From: Leptotrichia wadei
GTDB taxonomy: Bacteria; Fusobacteriota; Fusobacteriia; Fusobacteriales; Leptotrichiaceae
Direction: 5' to 3'
Length of the DNA stretch: 64,000 nt
Assembly: GCF_007990545.2 (NCBI RefSeq)
Contig: NZ_AP019829.2
Location: forward strand, 992,001 to 1,056,000
Numbering within the stretch: position 1 is the first letter of the stretch; each line of letters opens with the position of its first letter. Under the pieces are notes generated by a model, which made no database searches, was not told the origin of the DNA, and worked only from the letters and a program-made list of their open reading frames with translations. A program made the translations under genes and the position numbers. Shown here in pieces: positions 34,689 through 57,198 of the stretch.

Positions 34689-36314
<1,626 letters not shown>

Positions 36315-36336
36315 TCTATGAAATCTAATAAAATAA

Positions 36337-36367
36337 GGGGTAGTCATTATAAACTACCTCTTTTTTT
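36337..36367 (+). terminator. Intrinsic terminator of groEL
   Basis: GGGGTAGT (from 36337) pairs with ACTACCTC (36353-36360, one G-U pair), followed by seven T. Confidence 0.85.
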
Positions 36368-36375
36368 CTGCTATA

Positions 36376-37668
36376 TTATTTTTTGATTTTTATTTCTTCT
36401 AAAATTGTCTTCACATTTTCTAAATTAATACTTTTTCCGCTTTCCAAGAGCTTTTCTACGATAATATCAATTTCTTTACCTTTTGCACCAGCAAAAAGTG
36501 CTAACGAACGAGCCTGTAACTTCATGTGTCCGTGCTGTATTCCAGTTGTAACAAGTGCTTTTACTGCGGCAAAGTTTTGAGCAAGCCCTACTGATGTAAT
36601 AATGCTTGCCAGTGTCCTTGCGTCAGGATTTCCTAAAATATTAAATGCAGCTTTTACGCTTGGATTTAGTCCTATTGATCCACCTACACTTGCAATTGGC
36701 ATTGGAAGGGTAAGTTCTCCCTTTAATTTATTTGTGCTTTCATCAAAAGTCCAAGTTGTAAGTCCTTCATATTTGCCATTTTTCACAGCGAAGGCATTTC
36801 CTCCAGCTTCAATTGCACGCCAGTCGTTCCCCGTAGCAATTACCACAGCGTCGATTCCGTTGAAAATTCCTTTATTATGCGTTGTGGCACGATAAATATC
36901 AAGTTTTGCAAATTTGCTCGCAAGTTCTATTTTTTTTGCAGTTTCAATAGACGTCTCCATTGAGCTGCTAAGAAGTTTTACATTTACTTCACATTCTGCA
37001 TTTACAAGAGATTCGGTTGCATAATTTGATAAAATTGCCATTAGGCTTTTTCCGTTTGTAATATTTTCAAGCGGCATTTTTATTGCCTCAAGCATTGTAT
37101 TCAAAATATTTGCTCCCATAGCCTCCTTTACATCGGCAATCAGATAAACAATTAAAAATTCATCAATATTCTTCACTTCAATATTAATTGCTCCACCGCC
37201 ACGTGCTACAATCGAAGGATGGGCATCATTTGCAATTTTCAAAATTTCATTTTTATTTTCCAAAATCATTGAAATAGCATTATCAAAGTCCAAAATATCA
37301 TATAATGCAACTTGCCCAATCATTTTCCTATCTAAAATTTTTGTTGTGAAACCACCAGATTTTCCTATAATTTTAGCTGCGTAACTGCACCCTGCAACAA
37401 CAGAGGGTTCTTCCGTAACCATTGGCACAGCATAATCTTTTTCATCAATAACAAAGTTTGGAGCAACGCTGAATGGCAAGGCAAATGTTCCGATTCCATT
37501 TTCAGCCATTTGATTTGCAGTTTCTAGTGGCAAGTTCTCGTTTTTTTTCAGAAGTTGTTCAAATTCTTCAGTTAAAAAGCCATTATCTTTTAACATCTGT
37601 ATTCGCTCAGTTCGTTCTTTTTTTTGAAAGCCAAGCCAATTTAATTTTTTTTGATTTTCCTTTTTCAT
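36376..37668 (-). CDS. mvaA: Hydroxymethylglutaryl-CoA reductase, class II (degradative-type)
   Basis: Interconverts HMG-CoA and mevalonate. AAAGGAA favours the ATG at 37668 (MKKENQKKLNWLGF); an in-frame TTG at 37713 lies inside an inverted repeat and is unlikely. Class II signatures: PMVTEEPSVVAG with the catalytic Glu (86 or 87), ATTHNKGIFNGIDAVVIATG (catalytic Lys, then Asp) and GIQHGHMKLQARSLA with the general-acid His. 430 residues. It is last in the mvaS-acetyltransferase-mvaA operon. Despite the degradative label, class II enzymes next to mvaS normally work in the biosynthetic direction. Confidence 0.95.
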   Translation of the reverse strand: MKKENQKKLNWLGFQKKERTERIQMLKDNGFLTEEFEQLLKKNENLPLETANQMAENGIGTFALPFSVAPNFVIDEKDYAVPMVTEEPSVVAGCSYAAKIIGKSGGFTTKILDRKMIGQVALYDILDFDNAISMILENKNEILKIANDAHPSIVARGGGAINIEVKNIDEFLIVYLIADVKEAMGANILNTMLEAIKMPLENITNGKSLMAILSNYATESLVNAECEVNVKLLSSSMETSIETAKKIELASKFAKLDIYRATTHNKGIFNGIDAVVIATGNDWRAIEAGGNAFAVKNGKYEGLTTWTFDESTNKLKGELTLPMPIASVGGSIGLNPSVKAAFNILGNPDARTLASIITSVGLAQNFAAVKALVTTGIQHGHMKLQARSLALFAGAKGKEIDIIVEKLLESGKSINLENVKTILEEIKIKK

Positions 37669-38382: not shown

Positions 38383-39594
38383 TTAGTTTATTTTTTTGTA
38401 AATTCTTTTGTGATTTTCCACTTTTTCTAACACAAACGCATTATCGCTTTCCTGAATAAGTTTGCTATTTGAAAAATCACAATTTCCTTCATTATCTAAA
38501 ATTATTTTTTCAAAAAATAAATTTTCATATTCATTTATTGACAATTGCTTTCTATTGTCAAAATCGTTTAATCTATCATGCCTTAGATGATTTTTAAAGC
38601 CTTCTGCAAGGGTTAGATTAAAAAATTCACAAACAGCACCGCTTCCATAACTATACATTCCAATCTTGTCGCCAGCTTTCAAGCTATCACAGTTTTCAAG
38701 TAATGAAAGCAAACTTAGATAAAGAGAGCCGGTGTAGATATTTCCAACTCGTTTTCCATAAATTATTGAAGTATGAAATTTTTCCAAAAATTTATTTTTT
38801 GTTTCTTTTTCCACGTTTTTTTCTAAAAGCGAATTAATTGCTTTTAATCCAAGTTTTGGAAATGGTAAATGAAAACAGAAAGCATCAAAGTCAGATAAAT
38901 CTTGATTATATCTTTTTTTGTATTCATCAAATGTCGTTGTAAGGCAGTCGAGATACTGCTTTGTTGAAAAATGTCCGTCTACTATTGGGAAATCTGAGTA
39001 GTTGGGACGCCAGAAGTCCATAATATCACGTGTTTGACATACATTTTCATCATTTATTACAGCGATTTTTGGCTCCTTTTTTATTAACATTGCGATACTT
39101 CCTGCCCCCTGTGTAGATTCTCCAGGAGTGTTAATCCCATATTTTGCAGTATCTGAAGCAATTACGAGAACAGAAGCGTTTTCGTTCTTTTCAATATAGT
39201 TTTTAGCAAAACTTAGTGCGGCAGTGGCTCCATAGCAGGCTTCCTTTATTTCAACGGAACGTGCAAAAGGCTGAATATCCAGCAGATGATGAATAAAGAC
39301 AGCAGACGCCTTACTTTGATCAACACTTGATTCTGTCCCGACAATTATCATTTCAATATTTTTTTTATCTTCTTCATCTAGAATCTGTTCAGCGGCACTG
39401 GCTCCAAGTGATACAATATCCTCTGTAACAGGTGCTACACTCATTTCACTTTGCATAAGCCCTTTCACAAATTTATTTTCATTTTCATTTCTTCCAATCG
39501 CCAAATCTCGTATATCTAAAAAATATTTTGGCATTGCAAATCCAATTTTATCTATTCCAATTTTGATCTTCTCTTTTATTTCCTTAATTCTCAT
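38383..39594 (-). CDS. mvaS: Hydroxymethylglutaryl-CoA synthase
   Basis: Condenses acetyl-CoA and acetoacetyl-CoA into HMG-CoA. AAAGGG supports the ATG at 39594 (403 residues); an earlier in-frame ATG at 39636 lacks a ribosome binding site. Motifs are IGIDKIGFAMPKYFLD, the nucleophile Cys120 in KEACYGATAAL, DTAKYGINTPGESTQGAGS, and FHLPFPKLGLKA with the catalytic His, followed by KRVGNIYTGSLYLSLLSLL and YSYGSGAVCEFF. It heads the operon and has a clear promoter. Confidence 0.95.
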   Translation of the reverse strand: MRIKEIKEKIKIGIDKIGFAMPKYFLDIRDLAIGRNENENKFVKGLMQSEMSVAPVTEDIVSLGASAAEQILDEEDKKNIEMIIVGTESSVDQSKASAVFIHHLLDIQPFARSVEIKEACYGATAALSFAKNYIEKNENASVLVIASDTAKYGINTPGESTQGAGSIAMLIKKEPKIAVINDENVCQTRDIMDFWRPNYSDFPIVDGHFSTKQYLDCLTTTFDEYKKRYNQDLSDFDAFCFHLPFPKLGLKAINSLLEKNVEKETKNKFLEKFHTSIIYGKRVGNIYTGSLYLSLLSLLENCDSLKAGDKIGMYSYGSGAVCEFFNLTLAEGFKNHLRHDRLNDFDNRKQLSINEYENLFFEKIILDNEGNCDFSNSKLIQESDNAFVLEKVENHKRIYKKIN

Positions 39595-54087: not shown

Positions 54088-54798
54088 TTAAAGCGATATA
54101 GCAGTTTCAAGCGCAACTTCAATCATTTCGTTAAAAGTAGTCTGTCTTTCTTCGGCACTTGTAACTTCGTGAGTTATAAACGAATCACTTATTGTAAGCA
54201 AAGTCAATGCATTTGCCCCCAATTTAGCTGCAGTTGTATAAAGCTGAGCTGTTTCCATTTCTACGCACAAAACTCCAAATTTTGCCCATTTTTTCCAAGC
54301 ATTTGGGTCATCTCCGTAAAAAGTGTCACTTGTAAATACGTTTCCAGCTTTTATATTAAGCCCCTTTTGTTTTGCAATTTCGTATGCTTTAAAAAGCATT
54401 TCAGCATTTGCAGTTGGTGCATAATCTGCTCCGTTAAATCTAAGTTTGTTAATAGCTGAATCAGTTGAAGCTGACATCGCAAGTACGACATCTCTCACTT
54501 TTATATCCTCTTGATAAGAACCAGCAGTTCCAATTCTAATCAAATTTTTTACTCCAAATTCTGCAATCAATTCATGTGCATAAATTCCAATTGAAGGAAC
54601 TCCCATTCCAGTCCCTTGAACAGACACTTTTTTTCCTTTATAAGTCCCAGTAAATCCCAACATTCCACGAACATTGTTATATTGAACAGCATCTTCCAAA
54701 AAAGTTTCTGCAATATATTTTGCTCTTAATGGATCTCCAGGTAGCAGTATAGTTTCTGCAATATCTCCTTTATTTGCTCCAATATGTGGTGTTCCCAT
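54088..54798 (-). CDS. deoD: Purine-nucleoside phosphorylase, DeoD type
   Basis: Phosphorolysis of purine (deoxy)nucleosides for salvage. The 236-residue hexameric-type enzyme has [88 protein letters not shown] (ribose-binding Glu) and [10 protein letters not shown] with the catalytic Asp. AGGAGGT precedes the ATG. Confidence 0.97.
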
Positions 54799-54931: not shown

Positions 54932-54960
54932 TTGTAAAAATCTTGAAAAAATGGTATAAT
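54932..54960 (+). promoter_or_regulatory. pnp: Extended -10 promoter of pnp
   Basis: TTGTAA (54932-54937), 17-base spacer, TATAAT (54955-54960) preceded by TGG. Confidence 0.75.
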
Positions 54961-54968
54961 TATAAAAG

Positions 54969-55075
54969 TTTTAAGAAGGTATTTTGAGTAAGTAATTGTA
55001 AAGTTTTTTATTAATTAAATGATGAATATCTAAGTTAAGTAAAGAATTTTACTATTATTTGCTCCCTTCTTAAAA
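54969..55075 (+). promoter_or_regulatory. pnp: pnp leader with long-range stem, candidate RNase-processed autoregulatory site
   Basis: TTTTAAGAAGG (54969-54979) and CCTTCTTAAAA (55065-55075) are perfectly complementary, closing almost the whole leader from just after the start site to just before the AGGAGG. A small AGTAAA/TTTACT hairpin (about 55039-55054) lies inside. In E. coli, pnp is controlled by RNase III cutting of a leader stem; the same logic is possible here. Confidence 0.5.
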
Positions 55076-55098
55076 AATAAAAATTTTTAGGAGGAAAA

Positions 55099-57198
55099 AT
55101 GTTTGATGAAAAGATATATAGTTTTAATTTAGGAAATCAAGAAATTAAAATAAGTACTGGAAAAATTGCACGTCAAGCTGGAGGATCGGTTATTGTGCAA
55201 TGTGGCGGAACTGTACTTTTAGTTACAGCGACTAGAAGTAAGGATGTAAAGGAAGGTCAGGATTTTTTTCCGCTTACAGTTGACTACATTGAGAAATTTT
55301 ATGCATCTGGAAAATTTCCAGGTGGATTTATAAAAAGGGAAAGTAAGCCAGGAACTGATGAAATATTGATTTCAAGATTGATTGATAGACCGATTAGGCC
55401 GCTATTTCCAGAAGGATTTTTAAATGCGGTTCATATTGTAATTACGGTGTTTTCTTATGATGAAGTCAATTATCCTGAAAATCTGGCTACAATCGGAGTT
55501 TCTGCTGCATTGGGGTTGTCAGATATTCCGTTTGCTGGAACTGTGGCCGGAGTTACAGTTGGATACATTAACGGAGAATATATCTTAAATCCGACTGGTG
55601 AACAGCTTTTGGAAAGTGAGATTCAGCTGTCGGTTGCAGGTACAAAGGATGCCGTGACAATGGTAGAAGCTGGAGCTAAGGAAGTTTCTGAGGAAGTAAT
55701 GCTGGAAGCTATTATGTTTGGGCATGAAAAGATTAAGGAAATTTGTGCAGAGCAGGATAAATTTTTGGCACAATTTGACGTACAAAAATATGAATTTGAA
55801 AAAAAGGAAGTAGAGCCTGAAATTAAAGAATTTATTGACGGCTTTGAAAATGAAGTTGAAAATGCGATTATGACACCTGGTAAATTGGAAAAATATGAAG
55901 CGATTGATAATTTAGAAATAGAACTTTTTGAGAGATATGTTGAAAAACTTGAAAGTGAAGAAAGAGAAATTGACGAAAATCTTGAAAAGGAATTAAAAAA
56001 ATATTACAGAGATGTGGAAAAAAGACTTGTGAGAGATGCTATTTTGTACAAGCAATATCGGGCTGATGGAAGAAAAACTACTGAAATCCGTCCAATTGAT
56101 GTAGAAATAGATACACTTCCAGTACCACACGGTTCAGCATTGTTTACACGTGGAGAAACTCAGGCATTGGTTGTTGCAACACTTGGAAGTAAAGAAGATG
56201 AACAAATTATTGATGGAATGGAGGATGAAACACGTAAAAAATTCTTCCTGCACTATAATTTTCCGCCATATTCAGTTGGAGAAGCTGGATTTATGAGAGC
56301 ACCTGGAAGACGTGAACTAGGACATGGAAATTTAGCTGAAAGAGCATTAAAACATGTTATGCCAGATCAAGATAAATTCCCATATACAGTAAGGCTTGTT
56401 TCTGAAATTACAGAATCTAACGGATCTTCATCACAAGCGACAATTTGTGGAGGATCGCTTGCTTTAATGGCAGCTGGAGTGCCTATAAAATCAACAGTTG
56501 CAGGAATTGCAATGGGACTTATAAAAGAAGGGGATACATTTACTGTACTTACTGATATTCAAGGACTCGAAGATCATCTTGGAGATATGGACTTTAAAGT
56601 TGCAGGTACAAAAGATGGAATTACTGCGATTCAAATGGATATAAAAATTGAAGGAATTACAAGAGAAATAATGGAAATTGCTTTAAAACAAGCATTGGAA
56701 GGAAGAATGTTCATTATTGATAAAATGGAAGCTGTAATAAGCGAACCTAGAGCTGAAGTCTCTGAAAATGCACCAAAAATTGAAGTTATCAAAATTAATC
56801 CAGATAAGATTGCAGGACTTATTGGGCCTGGAGGAAAAGTTATTAGAGCGATTATTGATGAAACTGGAGTTTCAATAGATATTGATGATGATGGAACTGT
56901 TTCAATTTTTGGAAAAGAGTCTGAAAATATGAAAAAAGCATTGGAACTTGTAAAAAATCAAACACAATCTGTTGAGTTAAATGGAATTTATGAAGGAAAA
57001 GTTACAAAATTGATGAAATTTGGTGCATTTGTGGAAGTACTGCCAGGAAAAGAAGGGCTTTTACATATTTCTGAAATAAGCAATAAGAGAATTGAAAAGA
57101 CTGAAGATGCATTAAAAGAAGGACAAATTGTAAGAGTTAAAGTAATTTCAATGGAAAATGAAGATAAATTTAATTTAAGTATGAAGGCATTGTTGTAA
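55099..57198 (+). CDS. pnp: Polyribonucleotide nucleotidyltransferase (PNPase)
   Basis: Phosphorolytic 3'-5' exoribonuclease of the degradosome. 699 residues: two RNase PH domains (1-210, with [16 protein letters not shown]; 310-540, with [40 protein letters not shown] and [20 protein letters not shown]), then a KH domain ([20 protein letters not shown]) and an S1 domain ([31 protein letters not shown]). AGGAGG precedes the ATG. Confidence 0.98.

What the first reader, a model, noticed from the sequence alone, without database searches (positions are those of the whole stretch)
54955..55098. pnp leader closed by a perfect 11-base stem
TTTTAAGAAGG near the 5' end of the transcript pairs with CCTTCTTAAAA just before the ribosome binding site. 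E. coli pnp autoregulation uses an RNase III-cut leader stem; finding the same logic in a distant phylum would be notable.
Basis: partly seen in the sequence, partly recalled or inferred. Interest (0 to 1): 0.52.

Follow-up and report, generated by a model that had tools for sequence, protein, structure and literature searches.

The report
Conserved self-switching leader of pnp mRNA
The start of the mRNA for an RNA-degrading enzyme folds into a long hairpin kept across most of one order of bacteria, and it looks built so that the enzyme, by chewing away one strand, can switch off its own production.

Summary
The 11-bp stem is real (54969-54979/55065-55075) and closes a nearly continuous hairpin running from the predicted 5' end to just before the pnp ribosome-binding site. 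The same leader precedes pnp in 84 of 93 Fusobacteriota regions examined (23 genera). Outer arms co-vary (own -14.6, swapped between genera -6.9 kcal/mol); the inner helix has two-sided changes at 14 of 25 and 11 of 24 pairs (0/500 shuffles), yet its paired core AAGUARU/RUUAUUU hardly varies. Models find one convincing copy per genome, at pnp. Rfam 15 has no match. RNase III/PNPase autoregulation is the best reading, but cleavage is untested and the logic is already reported outside E. coli. What looks new: the 3' arm also pairs with the Shine-Dalgarno region (55066-55076/55084-55094), so removing the 5' strand closes the SD in silico. Of 74 leaders, 58 have a free SD when intact and 39 of these close (10.8 expected); the feature is not universal. 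Proposed: RNase III cuts, PNPase removes the 5' strand, and the freed 3' arm shuts pnp translation, a part that CsrA plays in E. coli; this genome lacks CsrA.

The parts
54932..54960 (+). sigma-70-like promoter of pnp (TTGTAA, 17 nt, TG-extended TATAAT); predicted start of transcription about 54966-54968
   Evidence: 10 of 12 consensus positions; TSS inferred
54969..54979 (+). outer helix, 5' arm TTTTAAGAAGG (resembles the SD region TTTTTAGGAGG)
   Evidence: co-varies with the 3' arm between genera
54980..54985 (+). 5'-side bulge between outer and inner helix (TATTTT); the first discontinuity is longer on the 5' side in 64 of 74 leaders
54986..54996 (+). inner helix, 5' strand, with the invariant core AAGUAAU at 54990-54996
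54998..55052 (+). distal helix and loop beyond the 1x1 U.U mismatch (54997/55053); pairs co-vary, loop length varies
55054..55064 (+). inner helix, 3' strand, with the invariant core AUUAUUU at 55054-55060
55065..55075 (+). outer helix, 3' arm CCTTCTTAAAA; overlaps the anti-SD strand 55066-55076
55066..55094 (+). alternative hairpin: 55066-55076 pairs with 55084-55094 (11 bp) and covers the Shine-Dalgarno sequence
55089..55094 (+). Shine-Dalgarno sequence AGGAGG
55099..57198 (+). pnp, polynucleotide phosphorylase, 699 aa (two RNase PH domains, KH, S1)

Best explanation
The leader is a conserved cis-regulatory RNA by which PNPase limits its own synthesis. Intact, the transcript folds with its 5' end in a long hairpin; the outer helix holds the 3' arm, so the ribosome-binding site is largely free and pnp is translated. 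RNase III cuts the hairpin (inferred), leaving the 5' strand paired to the new mRNA 5' end. When PNPase is plentiful it degrades that 5' strand from its new 3' end (inferred, as in E. coli). The freed 3' arm then pairs with the Shine-Dalgarno region (shown in silico) and stops initiation, after which the mRNA decays. When PNPase is scarce the 5' strand stays and translation goes on. Shown: structure, conservation, pnp-only location, mutually exclusive pairing in the window's genus. Inferred: cleavage, strand removal, repression. In lineages without the anti-SD arm the same leader would act by exposing the mRNA to decay.
For: Leader in 84 of 93 pnp upstream regions (83 of 91; plus L224 present and L223 absent). 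Inner helix: 14 of 25 pairs (29 of 45 distinct Fusobacteriaceae-type leaders) and 11 of 24 pairs (27 of 29 Leptotrichiaceae-type) change on both sides, 0/500 shuffles. Outer arms: own -14.6 against swapped -6.9 kcal/mol; related genera show U-A to C-G changes inside the very stem reported (L032, L033). One convincing copy per genome, at pnp. RNase III encoded; CsrA absent here and from 92 of 98 genomes. Window: stem fold -38.4, SD-hairpin fold -35.7; without the 5' strand only the SD hairpin covers the SD, at seven 5' ends tried. Mean SD unpaired probability, median of the window's genus: 0.80 full, 0.02 without the 5' strand, 0.55 without it and with shuffled 3' arms. Of 58 leaders with a free SD (of 74), 39 close it; 10.8 expected. 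The window's pnp has the strongest anti-SD hairpin of 38 SD-bearing ORFs.
Against: No cleavage, RNA-end or expression data. The anti-SD feature is not universal: 16 of 74 leaders do not have the SD half free even in the full fold, 19 of the other 58 do not close, and in g2, g4, g7, g19, g20, g23 and g24 no leader meets both limits. The window's own leader scores 0.50 in the full fold, just under the limit, and was not counted among the 39. With dinucleotide shuffles the anti-SD excess shrinks (genus mean z -0.76 against -1.48), and in g1 it vanishes (z 0.30), though such short arms leave few distinct shuffles. Swapping SD flanks between genera costs only 1.3 kcal/mol on average, and that test favours the native pairs. 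Within g15 some species have no anti-SD arm. The near-invariant core is not explained by RNase III, whose E. coli sites share no strong consensus (PMC8708148).
Confidence: 0.55

Rival explanations
1. E. coli-type leader without an SD switch: RNase III cuts, PNPase strips the 5' strand, and the exposed mRNA decays; the 3' arm's match to the SD is a by-product of a pyrimidine-rich arm next to a purine-rich SD.
For: Covers leaders with no anti-SD arm; dinucleotide-shuffle support for the anti-SD pairing is weak.
Against: 39 of 58 leaders close the SD against 10.8 expected with composition-matched arms; in g25 leaders the anti-SD match holds although the SD lies about 100 nt downstream; in g1 the two 11-bp pairings share 10 nt of the 3' arm.
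Confidence: 0.27
2. A trans-acting protein (PNPase itself through KH/S1, or another RNA-binding protein) recognises the invariant core and represses or protects the mRNA; RNase III is not essential.
For: Of the seven core pairs six never vary in either alignment and the seventh varies on one side only in one of them; ten never vary in the Fusobacteriaceae type; a G.U pair is kept throughout. RNase III in E. coli needs no strong consensus.
Against: No candidate protein tested; the long duplex goes beyond what a binding site needs. The core was also the search key, so its invariance is partly circular.
Confidence: 0.12
3. A plain protective 5' stem that shields the mRNA from 5'-end-dependent decay.
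For: The outer helix starts within a few nt of the predicted 5' end.
Against: Needs neither the invariant core nor the whole hairpin, and would not be confined to pnp.
Confidence: 0.05
4. Transcription attenuator, metabolite riboswitch or leader-peptide control.
For: Long structured leader.
Against: No terminator-like site; a single hairpin with a variable loop; no Rfam match; longest closed ORFs in the leaders are short, median 8 codons (30 of 74 reach 10), with no shared peptide looked for.
Confidence: 0.01

Closest known systems
Escherichia coli pnp leader (RNase III/PNPase autoregulation; Jarrige et al. 2001, seen only as cited)
   Same: Long stem-loop in the pnp 5' UTR; RNase III encoded; the 5' strand could be removed by PNPase after a cut.
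   Different: Own promoter, not behind rpsO; different sequence (model R1 does not match the E. coli region); conserved AAGUARU core; 3' arm complementary to the SD, which by eye the purine-rich E. coli 3' arm is not.
CsrA repression of processed E. coli pnp mRNA (Park et al. 2015; title seen in reference lists)
   Different: CsrA is absent from this genome and from 92 of 98 genomes of the phylum; here the repressing element would be the mRNA's own 3' arm.
Actino-pnp RNA (Rfam RF01688)
   Same: Structured cis element upstream of pnp, in Actinomycetales (table row in PMC2864571).
   Different: No Rfam match to the leaders scanned.
pnp leaders cut in Streptococcus pyogenes and Propionibacterium acnes
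   Same: Cuts in a pnp 5' UTR hairpin (passages in PMC6431027; PMC3848588).
   Different: Sequences not compared here; no anti-SD switch mentioned in the passages read.

Membership tests
RNase III/PNPase autoregulated pnp leader (E. coli type) | long double-stranded stem in the pnp 5' UTR | tested here: met
RNase III/PNPase autoregulated pnp leader (E. coli type) | RNase III and PNPase present | tested here: met
   (this genome)
RNase III/PNPase autoregulated pnp leader (E. coli type) | staggered RNase III cleavage in the stem | not testable with these tools
   no RNA end data
RNase III/PNPase autoregulated pnp leader (E. coli type) | PNPase degrades the upstream strand and lowers pnp expression | not testable with these tools
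   no expression data
CsrA arm of E. coli pnp control | CsrA present | tested here: not met
   none in G000; 6 of 98 genomes have it
Actino-pnp (RF01688) | match to the Rfam covariance model | tested here: not met
mutually exclusive SD-sequestering switch | one segment pairs either with a far strand or with the SD | tested here: met
   in silico only, for the window's genus; not in all lineages
transcription attenuator | intrinsic terminator in the leader | tested here: not met
   0 found

The most novel reading that the evidence does not exclude
A protein-free autoregulatory switch driven by strand removal: an exonuclease erases one strand of its own mRNA's leader, and the surviving strand, a built-in anti-Shine-Dalgarno whose erased partner mimics the SD, turns the message off; added to this, a near-invariant AAGUARU/RUUAUUU duplex that something reads by sequence. 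The whole forms an undescribed, pnp-only RNA family of the Fusobacteriales.
Probability: 0.4. Interest if true: 0.75.

Novelty: new variant of a known kind. Interest (0 to 1): 0.6.

Why it matters
PNPase autoregulation is a textbook circuit whose repressing step in E. coli rests on decay and CsrA. A lineage without CsrA that kept the logic but moved the repressor into the mRNA would show how such circuits are rewired, and it can be tested directly in a genetically tractable Fusobacterium or with reporters. The near-invariant paired core also raises a clear question: what reads a duplex by sequence when RNase III is not expected to?

Tried and rejected
Rfam: no match above chance at permissive thresholds in the window stretch or in 12 other loci, none at gathering score in 3 more. 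Attenuation: no terminator-like site. Leader peptide: lengths only, no conserved ORF sought by alignment. 5' arm as a decoy for 16S rRNA: weak, genus mean z -0.49, 15 of 23 below zero. Second copies of the motif: of the weak matches away from pnp, I fetched seven; six fold as other hairpins and the seventh, L225 (G074, E 0.007), has no pnp in the stretch. The rest of the weak matches (E 0.02 and above) were not fetched. The genome contigs pattern gave 82 stretches, of which I checked the 80 listed as L140-L219: 16 lie just upstream of pnp, all in records titled as Fusobacteriota members; 64 have no pnp and look like chance or repeats. That pattern fits the Fusobacteriaceae type only. My first motif search used crude patterns and missed or misplaced leaders; replaced. 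In one search the native pairing was optimised over cut points and the swapped one was not, so it leans towards the native. The helix lists come from minimum-energy folds and are canonical by construction; the swap test is the independent one. Leaders were found by the core motif, so core invariance is partly circular; models R1 and R2, which allow core changes, found nothing in the 8 leaderless loci.

Papers: search listings only; passages read in PMC2864571, PMC3997798, PMC6431027, PMC3848588, PMC5872136, PMC7492729, PMC5574718, PMC7247131, PMC8708148, PMC11005410 and PMC7866481. Not in print, as far as the searches go: this leader. The F. nucleatum end-mapping paper PMC11005410 has no 'pnp' in its main text; its supplements were not readable here.

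Full report
Observation. [quoted passage not shown] From 54967 the RNA folds as one near-continuous hairpin: outer helix of 11 bp, a 6-nt bulge on the 5' side, 11 bp, a U.U mismatch, a long distal helix. The downstream gene is pnp by its domains: two RNase PH repeats, KH, S1.

Relatives. A PNPase search found pnp in 93 of 98 genomes of the phylum. I read 91 upstream regions and two more (G013, G071). The leader is in 83 of the 91 and in G071, so in 84 of 93. The 83 reduce to 74 distinct leaders from 23 genera; G071 belongs to one of these genera. The leader is missing in L055, L056 (g17), L057, L058 (g14), L059 (g26), L079 (g27), L105 (g25, an incomplete genome), L108 (g29) and L223 (G013). 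In L059, L079 and L223 pnp sits behind rpsO; none of the 83 leader-bearing regions has S15 within 500 bases upstream (for L223 read from the sequence). G025 (partial pnp) was not examined.

Conservation. Fusobacteriaceae type, 29 of 45 distinct leaders aligned: 93.9% of cells paired, 14 of 25 pairs with two-sided change, 103 such cells against 30.8 in shuffles, 0/500. Leptotrichiaceae type, 27 of 29: 96.9%, 11 of 24 pairs, 57 cells against 18.6, 0/500. The shuffle control does not keep relatedness; sliding the partner by 1-3 columns, which does, drops pairing to 42-59%. Outer arms have variable bulges and do not align by column, so I swapped arms between genera: own -14.56, swapped -6.90 kcal/mol (74 leaders); g3, g4 and g11 do poorly in this test (median fraction of swaps as good: 0.24, 0.38, 0.11). 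In close relatives the reported stem itself shows two-sided changes (L032, L033). The core AAGUARU/RUUAUUU hardly changes although paired, and keeps a G.U pair; ten pairs never vary in the Fusobacteriaceae type.

Specificity. Model R2 finds one forward-strand match in 32 of 33 Leptotrichiaceae-type genomes, at pnp; the miss, G089, also gave no pnp match. Model R1 finds matches at E of 1e-4 or better in 52 of 61 Fusobacteriaceae-type genomes (counted), at the pnp places or, for G071, at pnp in L224. Antisense matches at the same places are expected of a hairpin. In a pattern scan of named genomes, 16 of the 80 loci checked lie upstream of pnp, among them Cetobacterium, Propionigenium maris, Fusobacterium mortiferum and Psychrilyobacter records.

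The switch. In the window 55066-55076 can pair with 55084-55094, covering AGGAGG; this shares 10 nt with the 3' arm of the outer stem. With the 5' strand the stem fold wins by 2.7 kcal/mol; without it, at each of seven 5' ends tried between 55045 and 55065, the minimum-energy fold has the SD hairpin. It is the strongest such hairpin of 38 SD-bearing ORFs in the window (median -3.1, pnp -10.4, next -10.2 at 39090). Over 74 leaders, 58 have the SD at least half free in the full fold; 39 of these fall to 0.25 or less without the 5' strand, with 10.8 expected from shuffled arms; 16 of 23 genera have at least one. Mononucleotide shuffles support anti-SD pairing in 21 of 23 genera (mean z -1.48, 35 of 74 leaders at 0.05), dinucleotide shuffles in 17 of 23 (mean z -0.76, 12 of 74). 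In g25 the SD is some 100 nt away and the match persists, which speaks for selection. In several lineages there is no such arm. I therefore hold the autoregulatory leader as likely and the switch as about even.

Known and new. RNase III control of pnp is known in E. coli and reported for other phyla (PMC8708148; PMC3848588; PMC6431027); in Rhodobacter sphaeroides no effect of RNase III on pnp mRNA was seen (PMC7866481). CsrA acts on processed pnp mRNA in E. coli (a title in reference lists); CsrA is missing here and in 92 of 98 genomes. New, as far as searched, are the RNA family and the anti-SD wiring. E. coli RNase III sites share no strong consensus, so the fixed core is unexplained.

Taxonomy.

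Noticed in passing
L013 and L014 (genome G006): In one genome of the window's genus pnp is found as two overlapping pieces in different frames, with stops inside one of them: a frameshift or an assembly error in a gene whose leader is intact.
   Followed up: no
L059, L079, L223: Fusobacteriota with pnp directly behind rpsO lack the leader; two of the three genomes (G075, G076) are among the 6 of 98 that have CsrA.
   Followed up: partly
window 39090 (- strand): A 235-codon ORF with a start at 39090 has the second strongest SD-covering hairpin in the window (-10.2 kcal/mol).
   Followed up: no
window 54088-54798 (- strand): A purine nucleoside phosphorylase-like gene (Pfam PNP_UDP_1) is divergently transcribed from pnp; the abbreviations look alike but the enzymes are different families.
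   Followed up: no
window 36310-36387: A hairpin with a weak match to model R1 (E 0.23), probably a terminator or chance.
   Followed up: no
window 54990-54996 and 55054-55060: Why a fully paired segment keeps its sequence, G.U pair included, across two families is not explained by RNase III alone.
   Followed up: partly
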